Source: Blattamonas nauphoetae
Lineage: Eukaryota; Preaxostyla; Oxymonadida
Direction: 5' to 3'
Assembly (NCBI GenBank): GCA_033064195.1
Contig: JARBJD010000170.1
Location: 62,001-126,000 of the forward strand
Length of the DNA stretch: 64,000 nt
In this document: positions 1 through 41,154 of the stretch, piece after piece
Layout of the letters: each line of letters opens with the position of its first letter
How positions within the stretch are numbered: the first letter of the stretch is position 1
Notes under the pieces: generated by a model
Told to the model about the DNA's origin: nothing
Seen by the model: the letters and a program-made list of their open reading frames with translations, nothing else
The model's database searches: none
Translations under genes and position numbers: made by a program

Positions 1-3000
1 ATATTGACAAAATAATGCTGGTCCAATAATAATGATGATGATTGTGGAACGATAAAAAAGTCCAGAATCGAGAGTCGATTGGATCTCGCCTTGGCTCGAA
101 AAAGGACGAAAAGACGATGTGGACAAAGATGAAAGAAATGCTGTGAAAAGCGAGTGGATGAAAATGACAAAGAAAACATGTGAAGTGGGAAGTGGATCTC
201 TGTTTTGGCAGAGATATCAACAAAATGAAACGAGCAGAACGAAGATTCCAGATGATCAACGAGATGACAACACAACCAAATGAAGGGTGATCGCGATGTC
301 TCTCAAACCATGAAATGAAGAGATCGTGTGATGAACGGAATTCTGGAGCTCAAATTACGAACACCAATCTCTCCCAACACAGATCGAGCGAGGGAGGAGA
401 ATGGTGGAAAAAAGACGAATGAGGAAAACGAGCACAAGAGTGAATGAGTGGCCGAGAGGGGGACATGAATGTGCTCGTTTGAGAATGAATGCGATCTGTG
501 ATTTTGAGTTGGTGAGTCGATCGCTTTTGGTGAAGCGAGTGGTCGGCACAATCTGGAGCGAGACAAGACTCTTTCTGAGAAACGAGTCCAACTCAGTCCA
601 GACTGACCAGAGTGAGATGAGTAGTAATGTTGGACAAACGAAGAGAGGATGGATTGAGCGTCCAACAGAGGCTCGCATGGATGGTGTGACCTCGTCTGAG
701 GCGTGTTTATGGTTGTGTGTGAGTGGGTGTTTGTGAGAATTGTGACGTGGTTGGAAGTGATGTGAATAAGAAGAAATATCGATGGTGAGGAGAGAACGAT
801 GACAATCAAGCGATGAGTCAAGCATTCAGTTCCACCTGATTCTGTTGTGTTTGGTTGTCGCTGAACAGAGACGACGATTCCAGCGACGAGATCAGATCTT
901 GAAGTGTCGGTCGATCATCCGGCTTCAGCGACAGACACTTCTCAATCACAATCATCAACTCCATTCCCATCGATCGGTCCGTGCACGGCTGGAATCCCGT
1001 TCCAAGCAGACGCTGAGCGTTTGTCGAGTCCACTTCTCCAAAAGGAACACTCTCCGTTTCCAGTTCCCAGAGAATCAGCCCCAAACTGAACACCGCCGCT
1101 TTCTCTGCCGACACCTTCTCTTTCCCTTCGTAGATCTCCGGCGCTTGCCACCGCTTCCCCTCGTGACCCTCGCCGAGGGGCTCAAGCCCTAAAAAAGACT
1201 GCGTCGAATTCTGTGTTGGCACCGCCGCCTTCTCTTCAGTCTGCAGCATCACCCTGTTCGAGCTGTCCAGAAGAATCGTGTGAGGCGAGATCCGACTCAG
1301 CGCTGTGAAGTTCTCGAAGTTCTGCCGCATTCGCTCCGCCAACTTCGCCAGTTCAACCGACATCCGCTGCTTCTCCTCTTTCGCCAGCTTCACCTGCTGC
1401 CGATGCAGCCTGTTGAACAGCGTGTCGTTCGTAAAGACGATCGTTGTCTCTTGCTCGTCACCAAACCGAATCACTTTTCGAGTTTCAACAAATCCAACCG
1501 GATCAATACCTCCTCTTTGAGGGGGAACGACATCCATTGATTTGGCTTGATCGAAAGCGTTGTCCGGTGCCTTCACGAGATTGGCGGAGGTGGAGTGGTT
1601 TTGGTAGGAAAGAGTGTCGTTGTCGAGTGTGTCGATTTTGAAGACGATTTCAGCATCATCGAGTTCCTTGTTTTGGGTTGACAACTTTTCAGCGTTCTGT
1701 TTCTTGTTTCGACGACAGATGAAAACAATCACCAGAATCACGAAGAAGGCAAAGAGGAGGACACTCGCAGAGATGATCAGAGGAAGAATCCAGTTCTTGT
1801 GTTCCGAGAATTGCGACTTCCGCTCGTCCGAAGCACTCAGCTTCACCATCACCGACGTCGACGTCCGATCATCCGACCCAAACACAAGTCGTGCTCGCCA
1901 TTCCATTTTCGATTCCAGTTGCGATAGTGCTTCTTCCGACAGTGTGATCGTCATCGACGATTCGGTCCAGTCGACAGTGTTCGATGACGAGAGAGCGATG
2001 GTCTGCCGCGATTTCTCTTTCTTCTCTTCAATCGAGAACACTTCAATCCACAATCCACAAGGAATCAGGAACTCCCCTTTCAGTCCAACTTTGAATGTCT
2101 TCGTTTTCTTGTTCCATTCTGCTTTCTTCTCGTTTGGTGTCAGTTCGGGCGAGAAGAACACCGAATCGGCTGCGATGTCGTCGGTCTCGATTGTGCAGTT
2201 CTCTTCCAACACAATCCATCCGTTTCTGTGCTCCTTTGTTCCGTCTCCTCCACTCAGCGACTCAATCACAACTTCCCCATTCCCACTGCAGCGGATATTC
2301 CTTCCGAAGGACGGGAATGCTTCGAAACCAGTAAAGTTCTTTGAGAAACCACCAAAATGGATTTCGGTCTGACCGTCCACCATTTCAATCGCGCCTTGTC
2401 GAAGTCGTTCGAACTTGGTTGATGTGAGGTCCAGATTTGTGTTTGATGTTTGGATGACAGCTCCAGTCCAGCTGCAGATCTCTTCTGCGTTTGAATGCAA
2501 ATTGGACGAGGAGAAAGAAGATGACGGTGTCGATGGACCAAGGAAGGTGCAGCTCGAGAGTGTCATGTTGGCGGTGTCTGACACTTTCGCAAAAACACTC
2601 TCAACACTCCCCAAAAACGACGTCTCGCTCAGCGACGAGTGCGACAGCGATGACAACTCCAAAATTGGTGACGATGTCTCAAGCAATTTCAGAATCACTT
2701 TCGTCATCTCAATCGAGCCGCCATCCATCCAGACAAGACCAGATCCCCTCGCTTTCAGTTCCGATGATCCAACAATCGTCAGCGATTCCAGCTCAAGTCG
2801 CCCATGTCCGCGAAGCATCCACGCAACTCCATTCTCTGGCTTCACTTCAATCGTCGGGTGAGATGTCACACTGTCCGACAGCTTCACTCGCATCGAAGAG
2901 AAGTCAAGTCCTTTCTCGAGAATCGTCGAAGTCAGTGTGGAGATCGTCAGTCGCTTCAGATTCAGCTCTTTCACAACATCGAACAGCAACCCAAGTGATC

Positions 3001-6000
3001 GCGCTGGAAAGTCCTCTCCTCCAAAAAGCGATTCATCTGCCGATCCTGTCGAGTCGGAGAAAAGAGACAATTCAGTTGGAGCAGTGAATGGGCCGAATGT
3101 CTTCGAGCTGATAGGGATTTCAAGGTTTGAGTCAAGTTCGCTGCTGATCTTCGAAACTTCGAATGTCGTCGCGAACTGCAGACCAGGCTGGCGAATCAAT
3201 GAGATCGGAGACGATGATCCAGATGTGTCAGAGGTGAAAGTGATTGGGGTGGTCAGAGGAGAGTTCACAAGATGGATCACATATGTGGAGGCTTCGGGCA
3301 GATTCGATCCACTGACTGAAAGAAGAATCGAAGTGTTCATTTCGGTGCTGAAGGAGGCAGAAATCGAGGCAATCACAGGAGATTCGGGAACAGTGAAAGA
3401 AATCGGTTCAAAGAAGAGAGGAGACGATGAGCCAGAAACGAAGAATCCATTCACTGAATATGAATGCGAAGGAAGAAGATCAACCGAATCTCCAAAAATC
3501 GTTCCCGAAACAATCCATTCCGACGAAGAGAACGACATCGACAGATTCGACAAAGCGAACGGCGAAACCGAATCTTTCACTTCAACCACGTACTCTTTCG
3601 ATGTGTCCAGTTCACGACCAGCAACAGGAATCAGAAGTGTCGTTTGAGAAGGATTGAAACGAAGAGATGACGAGATCGTAACAAGACGAGTCGGTTCAGT
3701 TCCAGTAACGAACGAAAGACCAGAATCATACAGCACAGGTGTTGATGACGAATCCTTCACCCCAATCACTTCATAGCATGTCGAATAGTTCAGTCGAGAC
3801 ACTTCCTCATTCGTTGAGAAGAGGATCGCAGTGCTCGATCCACTCGTTCCATCTGTGAATGTCGCAGTCAGCGATCCAGCTGGACTCAGTGAAATCGTGA
3901 ATGGTCCTTTCGTCATTCCAATCCCAGTCAACACAAGTGGCAGTTCCTTCTCCTTGTCCACGGGTGACTTCTGCACCAATCCTGTCAAACGAGCGGGTGT
4001 TGGATCAAGTGAGAATTCAACATTCGATTCAACATGGACTTTCCGACTCATCCCAACTTTCTTCTCCAAACTCACAATTCGATAACGCACTCCAAACTTC
4101 AGTTCTGTTGTCGGATACAGCCACGCTGTGCTCGTCCCTTCCACTTCTGAGCCGAACGATGCTGTCAGAACTGGCTTGTCTGACGAGTCGGCAGTGTTCT
4201 CAACTTCCATCGAGAACTCTCCAGTCTCCATCCAATGACCTTCCAGCGCGATTGTCGTTGTGTTCTTGTCATCCGAATATTCAACAGTTCCAACTCTCAA
4301 AACTCGGCTTGGTTCTGAAATCGTTTTAATGGTCTGTCCACCAACAAACAGCACTTCATCCTTCTTCTCGTCAACCACGTTCGTCAGCTCGTACGTCGTG
4401 TCATAATCAAGCTCAATCTCTTCTGAATTCTCTGAAAACAGAATCCCACTTCCTGATCCAGCTGTGCTTGTCGTGAACGAAACAACAATCGTTCGAACTG
4501 TCGAAGGCGAAGATGACGTCAGAGACAGTGTCAGCTTCTTGTTCGTCGGCATCGACAATCCTTCAACCACAAAGTTCGCTTTCTTCTCAAGTGCGTCGTA
4601 CGGAGACAATGACAGTTTCGTCACACGAGTTGGTTCAGCAGGAACTTGGAACACAACCAGAGGATTCACAATCGTCGGTGTGTCAGCAATTGACAAAACA
4701 GAGACAATGTATTCTGCTCCATATTTCAATTTCGATTCCGCATTCTCAAAGATCAGTTCGGTCACTGACGCTGATGTCTGATCTCCACTTCCAGAAACTG
4801 TCCCATCCAAATCAAACAACAATCCCTTCGCTTCATTCGTCTTTGAATCCCACTCTTGAATCGACACCGAAAACGGTGATCCACCAGGAAGGGCAACTCC
4901 AGACAGAAGAACTGTCCCAAACGCCTTCTCATCGTCAAGAAGATCACAGCATGCCGATTCAACTCGACACGGCGCAGGCGGAATCGTGAAGCGAGTCGAT
5001 GACGACACGGATGCAGAGATCGTCGAGCTTGTCATCGAAATCACTTCGTACGTTCTTCCATACTTCAGTTCCTCGCTTCCATAAACAACAAACGATCCTT
5101 CCCCAATCGATGTCGGAGAGACTGATCCAAATGAGAACAAAAGACCAATCTCTTTCTTTGTTGCATCAGAAACAGCAAACACTTTCAGAGTGAACGATTC
5201 TTTCGTCATTCGAGAACAATCCAGTGTCAGATCGACGTTGTTCAGATTGGTCGATGTCAGTGTCGGGGAACGAATGCTCGAAAGAGTCGGTCCTTCTAGT
5301 GTTTCCATCAAAATCTCTCCAAACACAATGTGTTCGTCCTCCTTCCCCGATTCTCGCTTCATCAACGATGACAGAGAATACGATTTGTTGAATCCAAATT
5401 GCGAGTTCAGAGATACTTCAACTCGGCTTGTTCCTTCCCCATTTGTCAACGAAATCGCGATCGGCGTCGAAACGCCAGTGAACGAGGCGATGAAATCTCC
5501 ACTCACAACAACATCTGATACTTTCACTGATAATGAGAAGTGATGGTTCGTCGATGTGTCCAGCGAGGTCGAAAGCGTGCTGAGGACAGGTGCTGCTGGA
5601 ATCCTCATCGAAACATCGGCGTTCACAACATACGACGAGCCAACTCCCTCAATCGTGTATTCTTCTTTGAACTGCATTCGCGACTCATCCTCAACCAATC
5701 CAACTGAGAACACTCCTCGACATGTTGTAGAATCCACAAACGACAGCGACGACACCGACGTCCATTTCAACGATCCATTTGTCGCATTGATCGATCCCAT
5801 CGACGACTTCAGAAGTCGTCCAGAGAATGTCACTGTTGCCTCCGTCTTCGCTCCGTTCAGCACAATCGATTCAACTCCTTCAATTCGCGACGGTTCAGAA
5901 GGCGTCGTGATCGTCATCGCGTCTGATGCAATCCGAGTTGACGTCAGAGTCTCTTCCACGCGAGTCACAGAATACACTGTCCCGTATTCAAGTTGTTTGT

Positions 6001-6595
6001 CAGCATCGAAAGGATACAGTTGCGCCGACGAGTCAATCACTTCTCCCGATCCATCTGTCACAATCGTAAGTGTCCGAGTGTGAGCGGACACACCAGAGGG
6101 AGTGCTTGTCGACGAGAGGAACACAGAATACGATGTGGACGGCGAGAGAGTCGACGATGTCCAGTGAAGACCAACCGAATCACTTCCGCTTGTTCCCGAC
6201 ACACTCACAATGCGAGGAGGAGCTGGCGGTGTCGACACACTGATCGGCGTGCGAGTCGTCGACACTTCCAAGTTCGAAAGAGAAACCAGTTCGTAAAACG
6301 TTCCATACTTCACTTTCGCCAATCCAGACACATTCCGTGCCAGCACTGTCACAGACCCTCTCGATCCCACAATCCTCGTCTCCATCTCAACTTCCGCTTC
6401 TCCATCTGTCAACACAAGTGTGTACGTTCCATCCTTCACATTCGTCGTGATCAGAGAGAACACAACATTATCTAACGATTCATCAAGACTCGTCCAGATG
6501 CTGTGCACATGTGAGGGCTGGGTTGGTGTCGTGAAAGTGAAGGTCACAAAGTTGTCGGCGGTGCTGGCGTCGGTGTACAGATAATAAGACCAATC
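1..6595. repeat. Left arm of a giant inverted repeat
   Basis: The reverse complement of this segment matches about 8716-15262 almost base for base. The match starts at the window edge (an AATAATGCTGGTCCAATAAT-like motif pairs with the right-arm sequence near 15240-15260) and ends near 6595, where similarity stops inside the coding frame. The arm holds the 3' two-thirds of the large surface-protein gene plus ~800 bp of 3' flank (1-817), in which I see no other gene. Because the homology reaches base 1, the true outer limit may lie outside the window. Similarity was judged by eye, mainly from the two encoded proteins, which differ at only scattered residues and two short patches. Confidence 0.93.
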
Positions 6596-8522
6596 TCGAC
6601 GCACTGAAAGTGTCGACGAGTCGAAGATCTCGTTCGCCTCATCCGCATTCGCGCTCCCTCCACTTCGCGTCTTCGAAGGCGACGAGCTTCCCCCGATCGT
6701 CACCAGATGATACAGCGTCCCTCCCAACATCTCGTCTGGCCCTCCAACTGGGATGTCTGAGTTGATCCCAGGATGGTCTTCACCAAGCACCATTTCGAAC
6801 GAGAATGTCACGTTGTTGTCATCTCGAACAACGACTGTGTAATTCCCTTCCTCTTTCCAGAACAGTCCAGTCACACCCATCACTCCCTTCCGAACATCGT
6901 TCTCGTTCCACCCAGTGCATTCGATGCTCCACAGCACAGGTCCAAACAGTTTGCTATGAGTAAGTTGTTCTTTGCTATAATCCCAGCAATTCGGTCTGTC
7001 TGACGTTGTCCAACAATACTGAATACGCTCCTTGTCGAACACGACATTGTATGTCATTGAGTCAAAGTCTAAATCGTGAGAGAACTTCGGCGAGTGAATC
7101 CCGAGTCCAACATTGGCATCGAAAAGGACGCTGTGGAGGCGAAAGTCCGTATTTCCATTTAATACGAGTCGGATCCCCCCTGTGCGGCCTCCCTCACCAT
7201 TTTCCAACACAGAGTTTGTGATTTGAGCATCACGTGGACCATTGATAGCGACAATACTGAAATTGGCTCGACATGCCGTCACGATGCAATCCGACATTCT
7301 TAATGGTTGGCTGCTGTACAAGTAAAACGTAGTCCCAGAGCTGTTTGTGTACCCTCCCGTGAACAGGCAATCCGTCACCTGGATTGGTTTCGTTGGGATG
7401 GAAGAAGTTGTTGACGAGTAAAAGCCTCCTCCCATACGCGCAGAACAATTCTCGAATTTGCAGTGTTTAACGACAATCTCGCACATCAAGGCAGTAAAAT
7501 AGATTCCGGCACCGTTTCCAGTTGTCGAGAGGTTCCGGAAGTGGCAGCGGGTGAAGATAAGTCGATCTGAGGCTGTCGCGGAAGTTGATTCGATCACAGT
7601 TCTTGTGTGATTCGTTTGGCCGGGCTTGATGTTCTGCTTGGTGATGTCGGCGTTGGAGAGGGTGGTTTGGGGTCCGCGGGTGTGGCAGCTCAGGAAAGTG
7701 TTGTTCGAACTCACAATCGAGCCCCCAAAGTTGAAGTCGCGGTTCAGTGTCCCCGAAAGGTGGTTCGAGCTCTGTTCCACACAGCATCCAAACAAGCCCT
7801 GCGAGAACTTCCAGTCTGCCTTCTTCCAGGGGCAGAACGGCGCACTTCCATTTCGAACAGAGATTCCCGACAATGAACACGAAACTCCCCGCAGGCTCTC
7901 TGTTCCGTCGCTGTCATCTTCAAATGACACAAGAACTCCGTCCCCCGTCCCCATTACGAACGAATCCAGTGTTGACGAAACCAGGTTCAACTCGACATTC
8001 GTCGTCCCTTTGGCTTCGGACCAAAATGGGCGAGTCATGTGTCGCGAGCTTGAAGCAACATGTCTGCAATGACACTGACGAATCTTCAACCACCAGTGCT
8101 CGTAGTTCTTCCTCGTTTTGTTTTTGGGTCTGGATCTGAGTTTGCATCGGTGTTAAGACGAACGAAACACAATTCAGAGAAACTGTCGAGTTCTCAATCC
8201 AAAGTTGATATGTCTTCTTCTCATTGATTCTCTCTTCCGTTGATGCATCTTGACTATCTGAAAACACAATTTCCGTTCCTTCTGATCCTCGAATTTCTGA
8301 TTCTGTGTTTTGGATTCTTGTCCAACTCGAGAATACTGCTTTGTTCGGAAGGACAATGGGTTGTTTCAGGTTATTGTTCCAGTGATGGTCGGAGTTTTGC
8401 TCGAGTATCGCCTTCAGATCTTGATCATGACGAATATGGTGGTTGGTTGGGTGGGTTGATGTAGCGCGTGAATCTGTAGCTACAGTGAGCACAAAAACAA
8501 TGAACGACCACGCAGGACTCAT
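818..8522 (-). CDS. Giant type-I membrane protein with Ig-like repeats and a degenerate kinase tail
   Basis: The likely start is the ATG at 8522, which opens a signal peptide (MSPAWSFIVFVLTVATDSRA). The product is about 2,560 residues. In order: signal peptide; Asn/Ser-rich beta-helix-like region (to ~560); about eleven ~95-residue beta-sandwich-like repeats (~740-1790), each closing with a YGxxY-type motif followed by a P-x-x-P-x-R/V linker; a second beta-helix-like stretch (~1830-2030); one transmembrane helix (ILPLIISASVLLFAFFVILV, ~2245-2275); RRNKK stop-transfer; kinase-like tail (~2350-2567). The tail keeps a W-Q-A-P-E subdomain VIII, an SLGLILWEL helix and a PDDRPT subdomain XI. It has no glycine loop, catalytic Lys, HRD or DFG, so it is probably a pseudokinase. 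The frame from 8522 and the long downstream frame overlap between about 7920 and 8089. A one-base frame change near 7990-8040 separates them, so either there is a sequencing error or the 5' end is broken. Family: large oxymonad surface proteins. The ligand is unknown. Confidence 0.8.
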
Positions 8523-8715
8523 GATGAATGAAACTAGTAAGTGTTACAACGATCCTTTTAATATTTGATAGGATTGTTGTTGGAACGAAGTGATCTCGCC
8601 CATTCTTTCAACATGAAAATTCAAACTGTTTCTTCTTTTTCATTCTAAACCCCAACCCGTAGAAGATTATACGACTCATGTAACATAGAAGTATACTGAC
8701 AGATGCAACGATCAA
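8523..8715. promoter_or_regulatory. Presumed promoter between head-to-head copies
   Basis: This is unique sequence between the start codon of the left gene (8522) and the right-arm junction (~8716). It is A/T-rich, with TTTTAATATTTGATAG at about 8555-8570. It should contain the promoter of the left gene. By position it could also drive rightward transcription into the truncated right copy. I see no element matching the TGACCCATAAC motif found elsewhere in the window. Confidence 0.4.
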
Positions 8716-11700
8716 GATTGTTGGTCGTATTATCTGTACACCGACGCCAGCACCGTAACCAAGTTTGTGACATTCACCTTCACGACACCAACACAGCCTC
8801 CTCATGTGCACAGCATCAAGGCGAGTCTTGATGAATCATTGGATTGTGTTGTGTTCTCTCTGATCACGACGAATGTGAAGGATGGAACGTACACACTTGT
8901 GTTGAAGGATGGAGAAGCGGAAGTTGAGATGGAGACGATGATTGTGGGATCGAGAGGGTCTGTGACAGTGCTGGCGCGGAATGTGTCTGGATTGGCGAAA
9001 GTGAAGTATGGAACGTTTTACGAACTGGTTTCTCTTTCGAACTTGGAAGTGTCGACGACTCGCACGCCGATCAGTGTGTCGACACCGCCAGCTCCTCCTC
9101 GCATTGTGAGTGTGTCGGGAACAAGCGGAAGTGATTCGGTTGGTCTTCACTGGACATCGTCGACTCTCTCGCCGTCCACATCGTATTCTGTGTTCCTCTC
9201 GTCGACAAGCACTCCCTCTGGTGTGTCCGCTCACACTCGGACACTTACGATTGTGACAGATGGATCGGGAGAAGTGATTGACTCGTCGGCGCAACTGTAT
9301 CCTTTCGATGCTGACAAACAACTTGAATACGGGACAGTGTATTCTGTGACTCGCGTGGAAGAGACGCTGACATCGACTCGGATTGCATCAGACGCGATGA
9401 CGATCACGACGCCTTCGGAACCGTCGCGAATTGAAGGGGTTCAATCGATTGTGCTGAACGGAGCGAAGACAGAAGCAACAGTGACATTCTCTGGTCGACT
9501 TCTGAAATTGTCGATGGGATCGATCAATGCGACAAATGGATCGTTGAAATGGACATCGGTGTCGTCTCTGTCGTTTGTGGATTCTGAATCTTGTTCGGCT
9601 GTGTTCTCAGTTGGATTGGTTGAGGATGAGTCGCGAATGCAGTTCAAAGAAGAATACACGATTGAGGGAGTTGGCTCGTCGTATGTTGTGAACGCCGATG
9701 TTTCGATGAGGATTCCAGCCGCACCTGTTCTCAGCACACTCTCGACATCGCTGGACACATCGACGAACCATCACTTCTCATTATCAGTGAAAGTATCAGA
9801 TGTTGTTGTGAGTGGAGATTTCATCGCCTCGTTCACTGGCGTTTCGACGCCGATCGCGATTTCGTTGACAAATGGGGAAGGAACAAGCCGAGTTGAAGTA
9901 TCTCTGAACTCGCAATTTGGATTCAACAAATCGTATTCTCTGTCATCGTTGGTGAAGAAAGAATCGGGGAAGGAGGACGAACACATTGTGTTTGGAGAGA
10001 TTTTGATGGAAACACTAGAAGGACCGACTCTTTCGAGCATTCGTTCACCAACACTGACGCCGACCAATCTGAACAACGTCGATCTGAAACTAGATTGTTC
10101 TCGAATGACACAAGAATTGTTCATTTTGAAAGTGTTTGATGTTTCTGACGCAACAAAGAAAGAGATTGATCTGTCGTTCTCATTTGGATCAGTCTCTCCG
10201 ACATCGATTGGAGAAGGATCGTTTGTTGTTTATGGAAGCGAGGAACTGAAGTATGGAAGAACGTACGAAGTGATTTCGATGACAAGCTCGACGATCTCTG
10301 CATCCGTGTCGTCATCGACTCGCTTCACGATTCCGCCTGCGCCGTGTCGAGTTGAATCGGCATGCTGTGATCTTCTTGACGATGAGAAGGCGTTTGAGAC
10401 AGTTCTTCTGTCTGGAGTTGCCCTTCCTGGTGGATCATCGTTTTCAGTGTCGATTCAAGAGTGGGATTCAAAGGCGAATGAAGTGAAGGGATTGTTGTTT
10501 GTTTTGGATGGGACAGTTTCTGGAAGTGGTGATCAGACATCAGCGTCAGTGACCGAACTGATCTTTAGGAATGCTGAGTCAAAACTGAAATATGGAGCAG
10601 AATACATTGTCTCGCTTTTGACAATTGCTGACACTCCAACGATTGTGAATCCTTTGGTTGTGTTCCAAGTTCCTGCTGAACCAACTCGTGTGACGAAACT
10701 GTCATTGTCTCCGTACGACGCACTTGAGAAGAAAGCGAACTTTGTGGTTGAAGGATTGTCGATGCCGACGAACAAGAAGCTGACACTGTCTCTGACGTCA
10801 TCTTCGCCTTCGACAGTTCGAACGATTGTTGTTTCGTTCACGACAAGCACAGCTGGATCAGGAAGTGGGATTCTGTTTTCAGAGAATTCAGAAGAGATTG
10901 AGCTTGATTATGACACGACGTACGAGCTGACGAACGTGGTTGACGAGAAGAAGGATGAAGTGCTGTTTGTTGGTGGACAGACCATTAAAACGATTTCAGA
11001 ACCGGGCCGAGTTTTGAGAGTTGGGACAGTTGGATATTCGGATGACAAGAACACAACGACAATCGCGCTGGAAGGTCATTGGATGGAGACTGGAGAGTTC
11101 TCGATGGAAGTTGAGAACACTGCCGACTCGTCAGACAAGCCAGTTCTGACAGCATCGTTCGGCTCAGAAGTGGAAGGGACGAGCACAGCGTGGCTGTATC
11201 CGACAGCAGAACTGAAGTTTGGAGTGCGTTATCGGATTGTGAGTTTGGAGAAGAAAGTTGGGATGAGTCGGAAAGTCCATGTTGAATCGAGTATTGAATT
11301 CTCACTTGATCCAACACCCGCTCGTTTGACAGGATTGGTGCAGAAGTCACCCGTGGACAAGGAGAAGGAACTGCCACTTGTGTTGACTGGGATTGGAATG
11401 ACGAAAGGACCATTCACGATTTCACTGAGTCCAGCTGGATCGCTGACTGCGACATTCACAGATGGAACGAGTGGATCGAGCACTGCGATCCTCTTCTCAA
11501 CGAATGAGGAAGTGTCTCGACTGAACTATTCGACTCGCTATGAAGTGATTGGAATGACAGACTCGTCATCAGAACCAGTTCTGTATGATTCTGGTCTTTC
11601 GTTCGTTACTGGAACTGAACCGACTCGTCTCGTTACGATCTCGTCATCTCTTCGCTTCAATCCTTCTCAAACGACACTTCTGATTCCTGTTGCTGGTCGT

Positions 11701-14493
11701 GAACTGGACACATCGAAAGAGTACGTGGTTGAAGTGAAAGATTCGGTTTCGCCGTTCGCTTTGTCGAATCTGTCGATGTCGTTCTCTTCATCAGAATGGA
11801 TTGTTTCGGGAACGATTTTTGGAGATTCGGTTGATCTTCTTCCTTCGCATTCGTATTCAGTGAATGGATTCTTCGTTTCTGGCTCGTCGTCTCCTCTCTT
11901 CTTTGAACCGATTTCTTTCACCGTCCCCGATCCTCCTCTCATTGCCTCAATTTCTGCCACCTTCAGCACCGAAATGAACACATCAATTCTTCTCTCAGTC
12001 AGTGGATCGAATCTGCCCGAAGCCTTCACATATGTGATCCATCTTGTGAACTCTCCTCTGACCATCCCAATCATCTTCACCTCCGACACATCTGGATCAT
12101 CGTCTCCGATCTCATTGATTCGCCAGCCTGGTCTGCAGTTCGCGACGACATTCGAAGTTTCGAAGATCAGCAGCGAACTTGACTCAAACCTTGAAATCCC
12201 TATCAGCTCGAAGACATTCGGCCCATTCACTGCTCCAACTGAATTGTCTCTTTTCTCCGACTCGACAGGATCGGCAGATGAATCGCTTTTTGGAGGAGAG
12301 GACTTTCCAGCGCGATCACTTGGGTTGCTGTTCGATGTTGTGAAAGAGCTGAATCTGAAGCGACTGACGATCTCCACACTGACTTCGACGATTGCGGAGA
12401 AAGGACTTGACTTCTCTTCGATGCGAGTGAAGCTGTCGGACAGTATGACATCTCACCCGACGATTGAAGTGAAGCCAGAGAATGGAGTTGCGTGGATGCT
12501 TCGCGGACATGGGCGACTTGAGCTGGAATCGCTGACGATTGTTGGATCATCGGAACTGAAAGCGAGGGGATCTGGTCTTGTTTGGATGGATGGCGGCTCG
12601 ATTGAGATGACGAAAGTGATTCTGAAATTGCTTGAGACATCGTCACCGATTTTGGAGTTGTCATCGCTGTCGCACTCGTCGCTGAGCGAGACGTCGTTTT
12701 TGGGGAGTGTTGAGAGTGTTTTTGCGAAAGTGTCAGACACCGCCTACATGACACTCTCGAGCTGCACCTTCCTTGGTCCATCGACACCGTCATCTTCTTT
12801 CTCCTCGTCCAATTTGCATTCGAGCACCGAAGAGATCTGCAGCTGGACTGGAGCTGTCATCCAAACATCAAACACCAATCCCTACCTCTTCTCCTCACAC
12901 TTCTCGCATTTCCACCAAGGAGCAATCGAGACAGTCGATGGAAGGGTGGAAGTCTTCACTTCAAGTTTTCAGAAGAACTTTGCTGGTTTCGAAGCATTCC
13001 CGTCCTTTGGAAGGAATATCCGCTGCAGCGGGAATGGGGAAGTTGTGATTGAGTCACTGAGTGGAGGAGACGGAACAAAGGAGCACAGAAATGGATGGAT
13101 TGTGTTGGAAGAGAACTGCACAATCGAAACCGACGACATCGCAGCCGATTCGGTGTTCTTCTCGCCGGAACTGACACCAAACGAGAAGAAAGCAGAATGG
13201 AACAAGAAAACGAAGACATTCAAAGTTGGGCTGAAAGGGGAGTTCCTGATTCCTTGTGGATTGTGGATTGAAGTGTTCTCGATTGAAGAGAAGAAAGAGA
13301 AATCGCGGCAGACCATCGCACTCTCGTCATCGAACACTGTCGACTGGACCGAATCGTCGATGACGATCACATTGTCGGAAGAAGCACTGAAGCAACTGGA
13401 ATCGAAACTGGAATGGCGAGCTCGAGTTGTGTTTGGGTCGGATGATCGGACGTCGACGTCGGTGATGGTGAAGCTGAGTGCTTCGGACGAGCGGAAGTCG
13501 CAATTCTCGGAACACAAGAACTGGATTCTTCCTCTGATCATCTCTGCGAGTGTCCTCCTCATTGCCTTCTTCGTGATTCTGGTGATTGTTTTCATCTGTC
13601 GTCGAAACAAGAAACAGAACGCTGAAAAGTTGTCAACACAAAACAAGGAACTCGATGATGCAGCTTTCATGGTCAAAATGGAGCCACCTGACCAAGACGA
13701 TATCTTCAGGCAACACTCCTCCGCCAATCTTGTGAAAGCTCCTGGCAATGCTTTGGAATGTGCCCCATCGACAGAACCCAAGATTATCCGTCAAGGAGAA
13801 GCAGTTGATCCGAGAGGTGTTGTTGAAACTCGAAAAGTGATTCGGTTTGGAGACGAGCAAGAGACAACGATCGTCTTTACGAACGACACGCTGTTCAACA
13901 GGCTGCATCGGCAGCAAGTGAAGCTGGCGAAAGAGGAGAAGCAGCGGATGTCAGTTGAACTGGCGAAGCTGGCGGAGCGAATGCGCCAGAACTTCGAGAA
14001 CTTCACAGCGCTGAGTCGGATCTCGCCTCACACGATTCTTCTGGACAGCTCGAACAGGGTGATGCTGCAGACGGAAGAGAAGGCAGGGGTGCCAACACAG
14101 AATTCGACGCAGTCTTTTTTAGGGCTTGAGCCCCTCGGCGAGGGTCACGAGGGGAAGCGGTGGCAAGCGCCGGAGATCTACGAAGGGAAAGAGAAGGTAT
14201 CGGCGGAGAAAGCGGCGGTGTTCAGTTTGGGACTGATTCTTTGGGAATTGGAAACGGAGAGTGTTCCTTTTGGAGAAGTGGACTCGACGAACGCTCAGCG
14301 TCTGCTTGGAACGGGATTCCAGCCGTGCACGGACCGATCGATGGGAATGGAGTTGATGATTGTGATTGAGAAGTGTCTGTCGCTGAAGCCGGATGATCGA
14401 CCGACACTTCAAGATCTGATCTCGTCGCTGGAATCGTCGTCTCTGTTCAGCGACAACCAAACACAACAGAATCAGGTGGAACTGAATGCTTGA
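8689..14493 (+). pseudogene. 5'-truncated second copy of the giant surface-protein gene
   Basis: An uninterrupted frame runs from just after a TAG at 8686 to the TGA at 14493. It encodes ~1,900 residues nearly identical to the C-terminal three-quarters of the left-arm protein: the ~95-aa repeats, the second beta-helix-like part, the membrane helix (~13,520-13,610) and the kinase-like tail. It lacks the signal peptide, the first beta-helix and any ATG before 8929 (codons EMETM), because the inverted-repeat junction cuts the gene. Without a signal peptide it should not reach the membrane in the normal way, so I call it a truncated copy. Yet no stop or frameshift has accumulated in 5.8 kb, which points to a very recent origin or to gene conversion between the arms. 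It lies tail-to-tail with the gene at 15318-20816. Confidence 0.75.
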
Positions 14494-15262
14494 CTCATCG
14501 CTTGATTGTCATCGTTCTCTCCTCACCATCGATATTTCTTCTTATTCACATCACTTCCAACCACGTCACAATTCTCACAAACACCCACTCACACACAACC
14601 ATAAACACGCCTCAGACGAGGTCACACCATCCACGCGTGCCTCTGTTGGACGCTCAATCCATCCTCTCTTCGTTTGTCCAACATTACTACTCATCTCACT
14701 CTGGTCAGTTTGGACTGAGTTGGACTCGTTTCTCCGAAAGAGTCTTGTCTCGCTCCAGTTTGTGCCGACCACTCGCTTCACCAAAAGCGATCGACTCACC
14801 AACTCAAAATCACAGATCGCATTCATTCTCAAACGAGCACATTCATGTCCCTCTCTCGGCCACTCATTCACACTTGTGCTCGTTTTCCTCATTCGTCTTT
14901 TTTCCACCATTCTCCTCAACTCGCTTGATCTGTGTGTTGGGAGAGATTGGTGTTCGTAATTAGAGCTCCAGAATTCAGTCCGATCTCTTCGTTTCATGGT
15001 TTGAGAGACATCGCGATCACCCTTCATTTGGTTGTCTTGTCATCTCGTTGATCATCTGGAATCTTCGTTCTGCTCGTTTCTATTTATCGTTCAATGTCAC
15101 TCTCTTCGACTCCCTTTTCATGGGGTTTCTTTCATCTTTATCCACATCAGCTTTTTCTCCATTTTCGAGGCAAGGCGAGATCCAAACAGCTCTCGATTCT
15201 GGACTTTTTCTTTTTCCACCATCATCATCATTCTTATTGGACTAGCATTGTTTCGACAAAAT
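8716..15262. repeat. Right arm of the giant inverted repeat
   Basis: This is the mirror copy of 1-6595. Similarity begins around 8716-8720 (TTGGTCGTATTATCTGTACA) and runs past the stop codon at 14493, through ~770 bp of 3' flank, to about 15262, just short of the stop codon of the next gene (15318). The non-coding portion 14494-15262 shows no gene; it is simply the mirrored 3' flank, well conserved with small indels. Confidence 0.93.
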
Positions 15263-15317
15263 GTGAGTAATACATACTGAATGGAGATGCGAGAACGGAA
15301 ACCAACAAGGCGATATG

Positions 15318-18300
15318 TTAAAAATAAGGAGAAAAGAAAGACTCGATTCCTGCGAGTGTCAAACCTTCATCCAACACGAGAGAGAAGTCATCCTCATCAA
15401 CAACAGTATCTCTGCACACCCGTGCGCGACGGTTTGGTGTTTGAGGAGAGTCAGAAAGCCCAGCGGCAGGATGGGAGCGATTTCTGGAGATGAAGAGATG
15501 AGGCATCAGGAGATTGTGACGAATGGTGTTCTCTGACTGATGCTCTGATTGATTCTGACGGCTAGTTACTGCCGATCCCAAATATGAAACGAAGGGACTG
15601 AATGATTGTGGGGAGAGCAAGATTGGATCCTGTCTGATTGAGATGTCATTCACTGGAAGCGAGACATGTTCTGAGAGTGCGGATTCGAATGATTCAATCA
15701 CAAAAACAAAATTGGAGGTGATTAGTACAAGTCTGGGCGTCTGTCCAGATGAAACGAGAAGTGTGAACGGGGAGGAGATGAGGACGGGTGAGAAAGCGAA
15801 TTCCATGTCTGAAAAAGGGTAATGTCTGATCCTTGTCAACATCTCTTCGTTGAGAGGATTCACAACACACAGTTCATTTTCCTTCCTTTCTTCATCACAA
15901 ACATCATCTCCGCAGAACCCAGCATCAAACGTGATGGTCTTGCTCAGAGGAGCTTCCATGAAGCCCTCGTCTTCCTCCGCCATTCTGCTCTTCACCACCC
16001 AATCCATCTCTTCCTCCTCGTCTCTCCGGATCAGCGGCGTGCGTGAATGGACATTTGCTGTGGATGAGAGGGTGGTTGTTGGATATGTGAAAGTCACATC
16101 GTCTGTGTCAAAAGGAGATTTGAAGAGGTCAGTCGCGGGCGCAACATGTGACACGATTGATTGGCGGATTGTGGGAGTGCTGATTTTTGAGAATAGCGAG
16201 TCAACCAGCTGTTCGCGGAGAGAAGAAGGAATGAACTCTGTTCTGCGAGCGACGTAGCTTCTGAGCGATGAGCGGAGAGAGTCTGATCTTTCGTGTGTTT
16301 CGCCCATCTGTCGAATGTCGTCTTCGAACTGGGTGTGTGGTTGGATATCGTCGGCACAGGCAGCATGCACGCTTTCCACCCCAAATTGAATCAACACTGT
16401 GTCCCCATCGTCCGTCAGTACCGTTGTCTTCTCTGCACGAACTCCGCGTGGAACTGCTGCGTGTGATCCAATCGTCATTCGTTCAGCGAATGCTTCAATT
16501 TGGAATTGTTTCGAGTTGATGGGCCAGACACAGTCTCGACCATCGGCATCGTCAATTTGATCATCAGCGTCATCAGCCAACTTGTACCGCTGGGCTCGCT
16601 CTGCCTTCTTTTCACATTTCTGCGATTCAGCTTCCTCCACAACTTGTGTGAGCGAGACGGTCTTTCCGTGTTGATCAACGAACTTGGCGTTTCTGATTCT
16701 GATGAATGTGAAGGTGTCGAATGTGACAAGAGATGACGGAAGTTGTTGACCAGATTCTGAGAGCGATGGCAACGGGAGAAGGATTGTTCCACCTGAATCA
16801 CACTCAAACGAGGAGAGCGATGCAATGTCAGCATCGACAAAGCGTGAATGAGGGAGAGTTGGGAGAGGAACCGAGATTGCCAGTGGGAGGGATGATTCTT
16901 GTTCTTTCTGCGTGTGGTCTGTGGATTGATGATGATTGAGACAATCCCAGGCGGTTTTGTTCCATCCTTGATTCGTCAGAGCAGCTGTCATCTCGTCCAC
17001 AGCGAGCTGGATACCCGAACACGGTTTGGATGTGCAGTTGGAAAGAGACGAGGTTGGAGTGGGCTGTCGAGATGAGAGCAGTGTGTCGTCCCACCAACAC
17101 AGTTCCTCACCTCGATCCGACTTCGCTTGAAGCGGATTCTCGACTTGATTGTTGTGTTCTGTCTCAGACTCCAGTTTTGGTGGCTGACTGTTGTTTTCAC
17201 TGTCTGTGTCAGATTCATCATCGTCTTCTTCCTCTTCGAATGAGGTCAGCCCGATTTCGACCAATCTCTCCAACACTTCACTCAGTTTCATCCGATTCTC
17301 CTTTTCTGGATGCCAACACTTTTCTATCACCTCTGCCAGTTCATCGTTGTCCTGTCTCAATTTGTCCAAGTTTGGCCTCTGTCCATCGGCGAGTCGAGTG
17401 TGGGCTGTTGAACTGTCCAACTCGGAAAATGGCTCAAAACCAGTCAAGATCTCATACAACACCAACCCAAAACTGAAGACACACATTTCTTCGCAGAGAG
17501 ATGATGACGACGATGTGTCCGAGTTTTCTGAGAAGGAGAGGAGCGATGGTGTCGAGGCTGACGATTGGTTGGAGAGGAGAGAGGTGTCGCTTGGTTGGGT
17601 TGGAGAGCTGAGAGACGGGAGAGACACCAGAGGCGATGAGACAGCAGAACAATCAGCTTCAGGTGCGAGCCAACGCATGACACGATACGAACTGGACGAC
17701 GAGTGATCGTGTGGAGATGTGTCGTTTGGAGTGAAATCGGAATAGGCGTGAATCGGATTTGGTGGAGCAGGTTTGTCCGATTCTGACGGATTCTTGTCTT
17801 TCGCCCCATTTTCGTTGTTGTACGGGCATTTCTTTGGTTGAGTCATGACCCGTAAGAACACACGACCGTCCTCCGACAGAAGAATCGAGTGAGGGCTGAA
17901 CATTTTGAGGGATTCTTCATCACCGAACTTCTCGTGGAGAACTCTCAAGCCACACAGCACTCGAACAAGGGTCTCTGGCTGTCGAAGCTTCTCCCTCAAG
18001 TCAGCGTTCTTGTGGTGGGAGGTTGGGGAGTGGAGAAGAGCATATGCGGAATAGGGAAAGATCCCAAAACTGAAGTCGAAATCTTCTTGGCAGGCGATTG
18101 CCTTCAGAATCTTCAGGTTTGTGAAATCGTCAACAATAGCTGCCTCGTCCTGTTCACAACGAGGTTGGACAACAGTCGGGATCTGTTGAGCGAGAAAGCA
18201 GCCTGAGCCGTCTTGTGTGATTTTGAAATTCTTGTTGCCAAGAAGAGGTTCTGAATCTTCGATTTCCATCTCAGTTTCGTTTTCTTCTTCTTCTTCTTCG

Positions 18301-20816
18301 AGAAGATCTTGTCTCTTCCTTCGACGATATGCTGCAAAGAAGAGAACAAGCACAACAACAAAAACTATCACGCCAACGAATGAGACAAGCGACACCACCA
18401 AAATAATCGTGACTGTTTTAGTTTGGGGTGCGAGAGGTTTGTGTGGGTCAATGGGATCAACAGGCGTGGAAGGATCGATAGGATCAATCGGTGTGGATGG
18501 ATCAGTTGGATCAATCGGCTTCGAAGGGTCAGTTGGATCAGTCGGCTTCGAAGGGTCAGTTGGATCAGTCGGCTTCGAAGGGTCAACGGGATCAGGTGGG
18601 ATTGGGAGGATGATGGGGACGGAGAGGGAGGCAGCGAAGGGAGAGGAGGAGAGAGAGCATGTTTCGAACATGGATGGACAGACAAAGGTGAGAGTAGCGT
18701 TGATAATGTGTGTGTCGTCTAGTGAGCCAAACTCGAGTTGTTTCGTCAGAACGGCGAAATCTTTCGTCCATCCATTCTCTTTGGTGAGTGTCACCGTTTC
18801 TGAGAACTCTGAAATTGGATTCTGTTGAGTAGACTGGCAGTTCTGTCCAAGATTTGTTGTTTTTGTGGTTTTCTGTGAAATCTTCACTTCAGCAGTTGCT
18901 TCAGGAAAGAGCAGGAGTGGAGCGACGACCACAGACACAACCGAATGTGTCTCATTGCCATCAATCGGCGAGACGGTCAGAGAAACTTCGTTCCCTTCCT
19001 CACAATCGAATTGTGGGACAATCAATTCATGTTCTTCTACAGGGACTCGGATTTCAAAAGAAGTTGAGAGGGACGGGTGGACAGACGTCAGATTTGAAGA
19101 GATTTCGGCTGATTGTGGATCGGAATCGATGAAATGGAACTCCATCTCGTCGGAGATGAAAAGCTCAGGGAGACCTGTGTGCGGCTCAGCGTGTGTGATG
19201 GTATCTGACACCAATGGGCCAAATTCAATTATTTCATCGAAAACATTAGAATAAACGATGTCCGCTGTGCTTTTCCAAAAGTCAACAATCGGAAGAAACG
19301 GATTTTTGGGTTTTCGACTTTTCCACGACGAGAAGGGAGGGATCCGGACATGCTCATTATGGGAATAGATTGGATCCTCTTCGAAAGGAAGATAGAACCA
19401 AGTTCCTTGTTCGATGGTGGGCGATGAAGTCAGTGGAATCACTTCAGTGTTTGTGGGAACATCGTTTTTCGTGGCTGAAGCGCTCAAATGATGGTTGAAC
19501 TGAGTATTCCTTGTTGTGTGGAAAGGATAGTACAAAAGTGATGAGAAATAGATATTCCATTTACTGGTGAGGTTTGTTAGCTGTTTTTCTTCATCAAGAG
19601 GAGCCAAATTCCACGTAAGAAGTGTGTGATACCCACTTCCTTGATAATGCTTCAGGAAAGGGAATTGAGTGTTGTTTGTAGGGGTGAAAGTGATTGAATG
19701 ATTGGTATCTTCCTTTGAGACTAATTTGATTGTGGTGTTAGCCGCCAAACATGCATCGTCCATGTCCGATCCAAAAACGCGGGAGTAATGTCGACATTCA
19801 CTCACTGTTGATGGTTGGATAGTATCTGGACAGTGACTTCCAGTAATAAATTGTCCAGCTCGATCCACACTCGGAGAAAAATGATCACCAATTCCAGAGA
19901 TCGCCTCCGTGTATGGGTTGATGCTGGCTTGTGTCCAGGACGTGGTATGATTCTTCGAAAGTTCGATGGATGTGTTTGTATTCCAATAGAAGCTTTGTGA
20001 ATCGACAATAAATTTAGAATACGACTGTCCTTTGTATTTGAGTGAGATCGACCAATCATGAGTGGTTTCGAAGGTAACCCAGAACGAAGCCCACACATTG
20101 GAACCATTATTCGAGAATTTCGGGGGTTTAATAATGGATTGCAGGGATTCTGAACTTGAGATACTGAAAATGTCACCATCGCGGATGATGGTTGTTTCAT
20201 GGGTGTTCCTCGCTTCCTGATTCCTTTGCGAAGAGTGAGATGTGATGGAAGGTATTGAGTCTTGCATAAACTTAGTAAGGTTGGCATCTGTTTTGACGAG
20301 CCGATGTGTTGGGAGTGTTTGGTTGTATTCAGTTTTGGTTTCAAGATCTGATGGAGGATTGTAACCAAGTTGAGTAAAATTCGGGAGAATGAAGATCAAG
20401 GCTTCGTTTGTGAACAATTCGGCTTCATTGCGACGCCAGAATGTTCTTGGGTAGATGAACAGAATGGGTTTTGGGTCGGTTAGATTGTTGAAAAACTCGT
20501 ACGGAAAAGAGACTGTGATAACATCAAATGTGTCTGAGGGAGGGTCCAAATGACGCAAAGCGACGTGTTCACATGGATATGAGACCTCGTATTGGAAGAG
20601 GATTCGCGAGTTCAGAGATTCTGGAGATCCTTCTTGTGATGATTCTTTTGTTAAGAAGGAGGGCTTCATATCTGCCAGAATCTGGATGTCGTTGGGAAGA
20701 AGAATGTCGATTGACAGAATTCCGTTGTTGTATTCCATCGACAGGAGGGTTAGATTGAGCTCTTGTTCAGCATGTGAGTCCGCAACTAATTGGATGAAGA
20801 TAGAAAGAAAAAGCAT
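15318..20816 (-). CDS. Receptor-like membrane protein with DPTDPSKP stalk and kinase-like tail
   Basis: A single 1,832-codon frame starts at the ATG at 20816. Residues 1-16 form a signal peptide (MLFLSIFIQLVADSHA). The ectodomain (~20-735) is rich in N-x-S/T sites and resembles nothing I can name. A proline stalk (~740-795) repeats (D-P-T/I/S)-D-P-S-K/T-P units. A transmembrane helix (IILVVSLVSFVGVIVFVVVL, ~800-830) is followed by RRRKRQ. A kinase-like region (~895-1195) has SPHSILLSEDGRVFLR in place of the catalytic loop, RWLAPEA for the APE motif, SFGLVLYEILTG and a terminal EKENRMKLSEVL; HRD and DFG are missing. A further ~600 residues, acidic then mixed, follow and are unusual for this family. 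The organisation matches the protein in the inverted repeat, but the ectodomain is unrelated. Probably a pseudokinase receptor; its role is unknown. Confidence 0.82.
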   Translation of the reverse strand: MLFLSIFIQLVADSHAEQELNLTLLSMEYNNGILSIDILLPNDIQILADMKPSFLTKESSQEGSPESLNSRILFQYEVSYPCEHVALRHLDPPSDTFDVITVSFPYEFFNNLTDPKPILFIYPRTFWRRNEAELFTNEALIFILPNFTQLGYNPPSDLETKTEYNQTLPTHRLVKTDANLTKFMQDSIPSITSHSSQRNQEARNTHETTIIRDGDIFSISSSESLQSIIKPPKFSNNGSNVWASFWVTFETTHDWSISLKYKGQSYSKFIVDSQSFYWNTNTSIELSKNHTTSWTQASINPYTEAISGIGDHFSPSVDRAGQFITGSHCPDTIQPSTVSECRHYSRVFGSDMDDACLAANTTIKLVSKEDTNHSITFTPTNNTQFPFLKHYQGSGYHTLLTWNLAPLDEEKQLTNLTSKWNIYFSSLLYYPFHTTRNTQFNHHLSASATKNDVPTNTEVIPLTSSPTIEQGTWFYLPFEEDPIYSHNEHVRIPPFSSWKSRKPKNPFLPIVDFWKSTADIVYSNVFDEIIEFGPLVSDTITHAEPHTGLPELFISDEMEFHFIDSDPQSAEISSNLTSVHPSLSTSFEIRVPVEEHELIVPQFDCEEGNEVSLTVSPIDGNETHSVVSVVVAPLLLFPEATAEVKISQKTTKTTNLGQNCQSTQQNPISEFSETVTLTKENGWTKDFAVLTKQLEFGSLDDTHIINATLTFVCPSMFETCSLSSSPFAASLSVPIILPIPPDPVDPSKPTDPTDPSKPTDPTDPSKPIDPTDPSTPIDPIDPSTPVDPIDPHKPLAPQTKTVTIILVVSLVSFVGVIVFVVVLVLFFAAYRRRKRQDLLEEEEEENETEMEIEDSEPLLGNKNFKITQDGSGCFLAQQIPTVVQPRCEQDEAAIVDDFTNLKILKAIACQEDFDFSFGIFPYSAYALLHSPTSHHKNADLREKLRQPETLVRVLCGLRVLHEKFGDEESLKMFSPHSILLSEDGRVFLRVMTQPKKCPYNNENGAKDKNPSESDKPAPPNPIHAYSDFTPNDTSPHDHSSSSSYRVMRWLAPEADCSAVSSPLVSLPSLSSPTQPSDTSLLSNQSSASTPSLLSFSENSDTSSSSSLCEEMCVFSFGLVLYEILTGFEPFSELDSSTAHTRLADGQRPNLDKLRQDNDELAEVIEKCWHPEKENRMKLSEVLERLVEIGLTSFEEEEDDDESDTDSENNSQPPKLESETEHNNQVENPLQAKSDRGEELCWWDDTLLSSRQPTPTSSLSNCTSKPCSGIQLAVDEMTAALTNQGWNKTAWDCLNHHQSTDHTQKEQESSLPLAISVPLPTLPHSRFVDADIASLSSFECDSGGTILLPLPSLSESGQQLPSSLVTFDTFTFIRIRNAKFVDQHGKTVSLTQVVEEAESQKCEKKAERAQRYKLADDADDQIDDADGRDCVWPINSKQFQIEAFAERMTIGSHAAVPRGVRAEKTTVLTDDGDTVLIQFGVESVHAACADDIQPHTQFEDDIRQMGETHERSDSLRSSLRSYVARRTEFIPSSLREQLVDSLFSKISTPTIRQSIVSHVAPATDLFKSPFDTDDVTFTYPTTTLSSTANVHSRTPLIRRDEEEEMDWVVKSRMAEEDEGFMEAPLSKTITFDAGFCGDDVCDEERKENELCVVNPLNEEMLTRIRHYPFSDMEFAFSPVLISSPFTLLVSSGQTPRLVLITSNFVFVIESFESALSEHVSLPVNDISIRQDPILLSPQSFSPFVSYLGSAVTSRQNQSEHQSENTIRHNLLMPHLFISRNRSHPAAGLSDSPQTPNRRARVCRDTVVDEDDFSLVLDEGLTLAGIESFFSPYF
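18423..18600 (-). repeat. In-frame proline-rich stalk repeat
   Basis: Tandem in-frame units of about 8-9 codons encode variations of DPSKPTDPT, seven or so in a row, just outside the membrane helix of the gene at 15318-20816. Three units are nearly identical at the DNA level (GGGTCAGTTGGATCAGTCGG). This suggests recent slippage or unequal exchange and probable length variation of the stalk between alleles. Confidence 0.8.
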
Positions 20817-26135: not shown

Positions 26136-26144
26136 GGAGTGCGC

Positions 26145-34500: not shown

Positions 34501-34660
34501 GAACAATCTGTGAAGTGACGAAGGATCGTCCATAAATCAAGATTGAAGAGAGGAGAGGACGTGAGGAAGAGGCAGGCTGCGAAAATCTCAGAGTGACGCA
34601 TTCGTTCTGTCCAAAGGAAGGCAGAAACAGATCGAGAGGGTCGCTGGCTCTTGCATGTTT

Positions 34661-41000: not shown

Positions 41001-41154
41001 AAGTGATGAAGGATCGGCCAGAAATCTAGATAGGAGAGATGAGATGAAGTTGGGAAGATGGAGGCTGCGAAAATCGCAAAGAGACAGATGTGTTCTGTCC
41101 AGAAGAAGTCAGGAACTGTTCGAAAGGGTCGCTGGTTCCTGTCTGTTTCTATTC

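What the first reader, a model, noticed from the sequence alone, without database searches (positions are those of the whole stretch)
1..15262. Giant near-perfect palindrome carrying two head-to-head copies of a >5-kb surface-protein gene
Arms of ~6.55 kb mirror each other around a 2.1-kb spacer. The right copy lacks its 5' end yet has no stop or frameshift in 5.8 kb. The layout resembles inverted duplications maintained by arm-to-arm gene conversion, or a very recent inverted duplication. It could also generate new antigen or receptor variants.
Basis: partly seen in the sequence, partly recalled or inferred. Interest (0 to 1): 0.85.

Follow-up and report, generated by a model that had tools for sequence, protein, structure and literature searches.

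The report
Inverted receptor-gene pair, gene-converted arms
In the gut flagellate Blattamonas nauphoetae two mirror-image copies of a giant receptor-like gene sit head to head, and stretches of one copy appear to have been overwritten by the other, a way of keeping old duplicates alike that is also seen in other neighbouring pairs of the same gene family.

Summary
The palindrome is real. Arms run from about -5 to 6593 (copy A, minus strand) and 8721 to 15268 (copy B, plus strand) around a 2.1-kb spacer; identity is 95.2%, so 'near-perfect' overstates it. The organism is the oxymonad Blattamonas nauphoetae; B is BLNAU_16352. The genes encode receptor-like proteins with a degenerate kinase tail, from a very large family. 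B starts mid-gene but is open for 5.8 kb. A keeps a start and signal-like leader, but a roughly 91-base deletion puts them out of frame with its long ORF. A-B differences are strongly clustered: most of the arms differ by about 1.7%, while two patches and the inner arm end reach synonymous divergence 0.41-1.22 (elsewhere 0.074), comparable to unlinked paralogues; A+B is rejected as a clade in both patches, and no other locus in the assembly is closer than 85% to any patch. This fits an old inverted duplication homogenised by arm-to-arm gene conversion better than a recent duplication. Three further inverted pairs of the family are mosaic, one with a clean 582-base identical tract; two direct neighbour pairs are mosaic too, so inversion is not required. 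Reads were not available, and a variant-generating function is untested.

The parts
1..6593 (-). Left palindrome arm (copy A); its outer end lies about 5 bases beyond the window start (C80:61995)
   Evidence: blastn self-comparison; place
8721..15268 (+). Right palindrome arm (copy B)
   Evidence: blastn self-comparison
6594..8720 (-). Spacer: 5' part of copy A (beta-helix region, leader, start) plus 198 bases between A's ATG and B's truncation point
   Evidence: Pfam Beta_helix PF13229 in residues 175-316 of P0001
818..8152 (-). Long ORF of copy A, 2,444 codons stop to stop: beta-helix region, repeated ectodomain modules, one transmembrane segment (1715-1786, by inspection), degenerate kinase tail
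7920..8522 (-). A's 5' frame, 200 codons from ATG 8522 with a hydrophobic leader (signal peptide by inspection only), out of frame with the long ORF
8001..8011 (-). Junction of the roughly 91-base deletion in A relative to C217, C296 and C312
   Evidence: blastn, alignment
8689..14493 (+). Copy B ORF (annotated BLNAU_16352), starts mid-gene, no stop or frameshift
2332..2500 (-). Divergent patch 1 in A (ectodomain side; 12814-12982 in B): A+B rejected as a clade, p-AU 0.0012; A-B dS 1.22
1490..1660 (-). Divergent patch 2 in A (linker between transmembrane segment and kinase-like tail; 13654-13821 in B): A+B rejected, p-AU 0.017; A-B dS 0.50
6466..6593 (-). Inner arm end, divergent: A-B dS 0.41; 18 of 95 sites differ in 6560-6466, though only 1 of 33 in 6593-6561
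1..228 (-). Outer arm end (noncoding), divergent: 35 of 184 aligned sites differ
13528..13599 (+). Transmembrane segment of B (by inspection)
13600..14490 (+). Cytoplasmic tail of B: linker plus degenerate protein-kinase fold lacking the HRD catalytic aspartate

Best explanation
An old inverted duplication of a giant receptor-like gene whose arms have been repeatedly overwritten by arm-to-arm gene conversion. Most of the arm length was homogenised fairly recently; two hypervariable patches and the arm ends escaped and keep the original, old divergence. B is a 5'-truncated inverted copy placed 198 bases upstream of A's start codon. Shown: geometry, open frames, mosaic divergence, conflicting patch trees, lack of a close donor in the assembly, mosaic divergence in three other inverted pairs. 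Inferred: direction and date of conversion, how the inversion first formed, and whether exchange with A or selection on B itself keeps B's frame open.
For: A-B differences at 1,483 polymorphic sites have dispersion index 8.1 against a maximum of 1.6 in 5,000 shuffles; A-C217 gives 1.25. Six identity runs pass the 95% null, the longest 103 polymorphic sites against a mean null maximum of 29. A two-state model gives 1.7% and 24.6% divergence (logL -1120 against -1304 for one rate). Synonymous divergence A-B: 0.074 in 1,767 codons, but 1.22, 0.50 and 0.41 in patch 1, patch 2 and the inner end, where A-C217 is 0.78, 0.53 and 0.55 (0.38 in the other codons). Trees: A+B 100/100 in the rest of coding 818-3000, rejected in patch 1 (p-AU 0.0012) and patch 2 (0.017). 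The nearest other locus is 80% (A) and 85% (B) identical to patch 1, 80% (A) and 75% (B) to patch 2. Replicates: C523 has a 582-base tract with no arm difference, while each arm differs from the C296 copy at 36 of 450 sites there; the tails of the C323 and C445 inverted pairs are 97.1% and 96.8% alike with identical runs of 665 and 770 bases, beyond the maximum of 1,000 shuffles (550 and 436).
Against: Two direct neighbour pairs (C129, C258) are also over-dispersed and C258 has a 309-base identical run, so palindromic geometry is not needed. A-C217 differences are over-dispersed as well (1.25, null mean 0.45, no shuffle reached it), and both A and B share one run of 16 polymorphic sites with C217 (p about 0.004), so rate variation or exchange with other loci plays some part. 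The patches evolve faster in the other paralogues too. The patches were chosen because A and B differ there, which biases the clade test towards rejection. Near the inner end B is closer to C217 (dS 0.15) than to A (0.41), and the last 33 bases are alike. The outer-end tree keeps A and B together without support (45/21). dS in these segments rests on 28-38 synonymous sites. No reads or second strain were available.
Confidence: 0.8

Rival explanations
1. Recent inverted duplication (a few per cent divergence), after which two patches and the arm ends were replaced from other family members by ectopic conversion.
For: Patch trees place B with C312 in patch 1 (100/99) and A with C312 in patch 2 (94/92); near the inner end B is closer to C217 than to A; the family is large enough to supply donors (1,614 first-look candidates).
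Against: An import younger than the duplication should match its donor at about 97% or better; the best other loci are 80% (A) and 85% (B) for patch 1, 80% (A) and 75% (B) for patch 2. Divergence at the outer arm end must be added separately. The published assembly is 98.24% complete by Merqury (PMC10703272), although the held copy has 837 contigs against 879 in the paper, so a missing donor is not excluded.
Confidence: 0.13
2. Assembly artefact: two paralogous loci or a fold-back read joined wrongly.
For: Nanopore/Canu assembly with DNA sheared near 20 kb (PMC10703272), not much longer than the 15.3-kb structure; reads were not available.
Against: Fold-back artefacts should give identical arms; these differ by 5% with indels of 6 and 3 bases in the coding part. 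The left outer junction recurs on another contig: window -62..771 matches C146 at 98.4%, and further left flank at 98.8-98.9%. Three other inverted pairs of the family exist in the assembly.
Confidence: 0.04
3. No gene conversion: simple old duplicates in which purifying selection conserved most of the sequence.
For: A, B, C217 and C296 stay open over 5.8 kb and A-B dN/dS is 0.32 overall, 0.19 outside the patches.
Against: Synonymous sites and the noncoding 3' flank are also alike: in nine 60-base windows from 780 to 300 A-B is 92-100% while A-C217 is 66-85% in the eight that could be scored.
Confidence: 0.02

Closest known systems
Gene-converted palindromes of mammalian Y chromosomes (e.g. 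human P6)
   Same: Two inverted arms around a spacer; arm identity kept by tract-wise conversion.
   Different: Y palindromes exceed 99.9% arm identity and P6 tracts average about 2 kb (PMC3723533, abstract and outline seen); here arms are 95% with identical runs up to 389 bases, and one gene is mirrored, in a protist.
Palindromes of the bdelloid Adineta vaga and the springtail Folsomia candida
   Same: Inverted gene duplicates with proposed palindrome-mediated conversion (PMC7953838, passages seen).
   Different: The original reports counted blocks of at least five genes, the later survey also single genes; that survey concludes palindromes play no major role in those genomes. Here single members of one gene family are mirrored.
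Protist surface-gene families diversified by conversion (trypanosome VSG, Entamoeba lectin, P. falciparum merozoite proteins)
   Same: Surface families with conversion between copies (search listing only).
   Different: No evidence here of an expression site, switching or immune pressure.
Receptor protein kinases and pseudokinases
   Same: Leader, ectodomain, one transmembrane segment, kinase-like tail.
   Different: No HRDxxxxN catalytic loop in any of 121 tails examined; the commonest reading there is LSPH/LSSH with a following hydrophobic stretch. Only the last third of the kinase profile matches A and B.

Membership tests
Gene-converting palindrome | Two long inverted arms on one chromosome with a spacer | tested here: met
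   (on the assembly)
Gene-converting palindrome | Arm-to-arm similarity in tracts beyond what common descent and selection give | tested here: met
   patches were chosen after seeing the divergence
Gene-converting palindrome | Presence of the palindrome in single long reads | not testable with these tools
   no reads held; left outer junction corroborated on contig C146
Gene-converting palindrome | Exchange tied to the inverted geometry | tested here: inconclusive
   4 of 5 opposite and 2 of 3 direct neighbour pairs tested align at 90-97% and all six are over-dispersed
Human Y-type palindrome | Arm identity above 99.9% | tested here: not met
   95.2%
Conversion-based surface-variant system | Copy lacking its own start or promoter acts as donor | tested here: inconclusive
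   B starts mid-gene, but A's start is out of frame too; the annotated B protein begins with nine residues in front of the translated stretch P0002
Conversion-based surface-variant system | Exclusive expression and switching | not testable with these tools
   needs RNA and single-cell data
Conversion-based surface-variant system | Excess of amino-acid change in exchanged patches | tested here: not met
   A-B dN/dS 0.23 in patch 1, 0.90 in patch 2
Pseudokinase | Protein-kinase fold | tested here: met
   AlphaFold2 pLDDT 75.6, pTM 0.71; Foldseek 1,977 PDB matches at E up to 0.001, 48 of the 50 shown name a protein kinase and two name only a ligand, TM-score 0.45-0.51 by query length; PF07714 34-35 bits over positions 168-258, cut-off 23.1, while PF00069 stays below its cut-off
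Pseudokinase | Loss of catalytic HRD aspartate and asparagine | tested here: met
   0 of 121 tails (B plus 120 homologues) match the HRDxxxxN pattern; 12 of 121 hold a DFG-like triplet somewhere
Pseudokinase | No phosphotransfer activity | not tested
   needs an assay

The most novel reading that the evidence does not exclude
Neighbouring copies, some of them mirror-image, in a very large oxymonad receptor-pseudokinase family form a recombination system: exchange between neighbours keeps the backbone alike while sheltered patches in the ectodomain and juxtamembrane linker hold alternative versions that can be reassorted, with truncated copies such as B serving as sequence stores rather than expressed receptors.
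Probability: 0.12. Interest if true: 0.8.

Novelty: new member of a known kind. Interest (0 to 1): 0.5.

Why it matters
It gives tract-level evidence for exchange between neighbouring inverted gene copies in an oxymonad, a lineage without mitochondria; the main text of the genome paper has 0 occurrences of the stem 'palindrom' (supplements not seen). It also points to a very large family of receptor-like proteins with a degenerate kinase tail; I did not see it in the passages of that paper found with kinase, receptor, Ig-like and expansion terms or in my listings for oxymonad, kinase and receptor and Monocercomonoides, genome and protein kinases, which show titles and abstract starts from an open-licence library. 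If neighbouring copies exchange sequence routinely, this genome allows a direct comparison of conversion in inverted and in direct pairs.

Tried and rejected
Rejected: a mobile-element origin of the unit. Homology in the 3' flank ends near the same place in A, B, C217 and C296, but I saw no inverted repeats or target duplications at the printed ends (by eye). Microhomology at the inner breakpoint was looked at by eye and gave nothing clear. Rejected: conversion confined to inverted pairs, because direct pairs C129 and C258 are mosaic too. Enrichment of inverted neighbours was not seen: by hand count (80 of 1,614 candidates scored), 5 of 10 neighbour pairs within 30 kb are opposite, 5 of 10 the same way. 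Pfam named no convincing domain in the repeated ectodomain (best E 0.15). Rfam gave nothing above the gathering scores in the window. A search with A's N-terminal half found only the C217 protein P0006, so no protein of 1,333-4,240 residues in that collection (clustered at 90%) was seen to carry A's 5' half. A Pfam PF07714 genome search returned 146 matches from 137 scored of 1,944 candidates and was not used for the family count. Alignment A2 of ectodomain modules was poor (13 relatives, mostly 13-20% identical) and was not folded. Tandem Repeats Finder on L031 found nothing; its longest period is 500, shorter than the 1,260-base modules.

Full report
What it is. The window is C80:62001-126000 of an 88.3-Mb, 837-contig assembly. 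The translated right copy is contained letter for letter in the protein BLNAU_16352 of Blattamonas nauphoetae, an oxymonad sequenced with Nanopore and Illumina and assembled with Canu, Nanopolish and Pilon (PMC10703272, passages seen; the paper counts 879 contigs and 88.5 Mb).

The observation. The arms are -5..6593 and 8721..15268 at 95.2% over the main block. Copy A lies on the minus strand and copy B on the plus strand, head to head. The spacer is the rest of A's 5' part. A's ATG at 8522 starts a 200-codon frame with a hydrophobic leader, homologous to C217, C296 and C312. 198 bases separate it from the point where B begins, in mid-gene (residue about 555 of the C217 protein).

Neither copy is simply complete. 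B lacks leader and beta-helix region; its annotated protein has nine residues in front of the stretch I translated, and their exon structure I could not check. A lacks about 91 bases present in three paralogues, so its start frame and its 2,444-codon frame do not match. An intron could rescue it; no RNA data were available. A search with A's N-terminal half found only the C217 protein.

The proteins. Both carry repeated ectodomain modules, one transmembrane segment (by inspection) and a tail that matches the last third of the kinase profile. The AlphaFold2 model of B's tail (pLDDT 75.6, pTM 0.71, 44 sequences; the first 70 residues are low confidence) matches kinase structures in the PDB. 0 of 121 tails fit the HRDxxxxN pattern, so it is a degenerate kinase domain by sequence. 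The family is very large: 1,614 first-look candidates, 80 scored, and 126 proteins at E up to 0.001, of which the 120 listed bear the name Blattamonas nauphoetae (only the 7,981 candidates sharing most words were scored). Ectodomain modules also multiply in tandem: C312:176988-187072 holds about eight 1,260-base copies, 95.7-98.5% alike.

Selection. A, B, C217 and C296 all stay open over 5.8 kb. A-B dN/dS is 0.32 overall and 0.19 outside the patches. On B's branch outside the patches, 29 of 63 polarised changes are nonsynonymous against 75% expected if neutral (p = 7e-7; A's branch 23 of 71; 16 ambiguous sites dropped; A and B do not differ significantly, p = 0.11). Over the whole ORF B's branch has 70 nonsynonymous of 119 and A's 57 of 125 with C217 as outgroup. 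A random substitution in B is nonsense 4.6% of the time, so about 3 stops would be expected from 63 changes, and none is seen; that alone is weak. This fits coding constraint on B, or repeated copying from A; the two cannot be separated here.

Conversion. A-B differences are far more clustered than shuffled sites allow (dispersion 8.1, maximum of 5,000 shuffles 1.6), A-C217 differences much less so, though also beyond their shuffles (1.25). A two-state model finds 1.7% and 24.6% divergence with 17 high segments. The larger ones are 6560-6466, 5227-5138, 2440-2332, 1654-1490 and 228-1; the innermost 33 bases of the arm are alike. Synonymous divergence is 0.41-1.22 in the inner end and the two patches against 0.074 elsewhere, a 5- to 16-fold contrast; A-C217 shows only 1.4- to 2-fold. 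A+B is a clade at 100/100 in the remaining 818-3000 coding sequence and is rejected in both patches, with the reservation that the patches were picked for their divergence. Genome searches with the four patch sequences found no other locus closer than 80% (A patch 1), 85% (B patch 1), 80% (A patch 2) and 75% (B patch 2). The noncoding 3' flank is alike as well. The simplest account is an old pair whose arms have been largely overwritten by one another. Some exchange with other loci is likely too: near the inner end B is nearer to C217 than to A, and the patches group A and B with different paralogues.

Replicates and controls. From I counted by hand 10 neighbour pairs within 30 kb, 5 in opposite orientation. 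I compared all 5 opposite pairs and 3 of the 5 direct ones, on 4-kb tails. Opposite: C80 94.9%, C523 92.9%, C323 97.1%, C445 96.8%, and C701 with no DNA alignment. Direct: C129 92.5%, C258 90.5%, and C96 with no alignment. All six alignable pairs are over-dispersed; this control does not remove rate variation along the gene. The longest identical run exceeds the maximum of 1,000 shuffles in C80, C523, C323, C445 and C258, but not in C129 (150 against 161). In C523 the arms (at least 8.0 kb, tail to tail, spacer about 10.9 kb; outer ends not reached) share 582 bases without a difference, whereas each arm differs from the C296 copy at 36 of 450 sites in that stretch. C523 was fetched because one search suggested it, so these pairs are not a random sample. 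Mirrored pairs recur in the family and exchange sequence, but direct pairs do too.

Reality of the structure. A left-flank duplicate on contig C146 (window -2045..-397 and -62..771 in three blocks at 98.4-98.9%) corroborates the left outer junction. Reads were not available, so the spacer junction rests on the assembly.

Comparison with known systems. It works like the gene-converting palindromes of mammalian sex chromosomes (PMC3723533, abstract and outline) and those reported in some asexual animals (PMC7953838, passages), at lower identity and on a single-gene scale. It is not shown to be an antigen- or receptor-switching system: dN/dS stays below 1 in the segments tested, and no expression data were at hand.

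Verdict. The recent-duplication reading is disfavoured and the variant-generating reading is open.

Noticed in passing
window 48237-50616: 41 perfect copies of a 58-base tandem repeat (100% matches); origin and role unknown.
   Followed up: no
window 22709-59169: About ten places on both strands hold copies of a gene of about 357 codons without a Pfam match at E up to 0.01 (P0004), pairwise 72-83% alike.
   Followed up: no
window 33423-35656 and 39910-42144: Direct duplicate of 2.25 kb at 82.8% within that gene array.
   Followed up: no
window 25697-26141: 38-base G-rich tandem repeat, 11.7 copies, 95% matches.
   Followed up: no
C312:176988-187072 (L013, L031): A family gene with a 4,922-codon open frame whose ectodomain holds about eight tandem 1,260-base modules, 95.7-98.5% alike.
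   Followed up: partly
C146:25111-27653 (L027): Near-identical copy (98.4-98.9%) of the left flank of the palindrome that breaks off 47 bases past A's stop.
   Followed up: partly
C523:114646-143000 (L033-L035): Second, tail-to-tail inverted pair of the family with a 582-base identical tract.
   Followed up: yes
C87:92520-96691 (-) and 112763-116937 (+): Another opposite-strand pair of family members, seen only as search hits.
   Followed up: no
window 15318-20816: P0003, a different receptor-like gene with a similar degenerate kinase tail, ends about 50 bases beyond the right arm.
   Followed up: no
G000 contigs C734, C643, C328, C152, C142 and others: Groups of contigs give hits of equal score to the same piece of the C523 arm, suggesting near-identical fragments repeated across the assembly or uncollapsed duplicates.
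   Followed up: no
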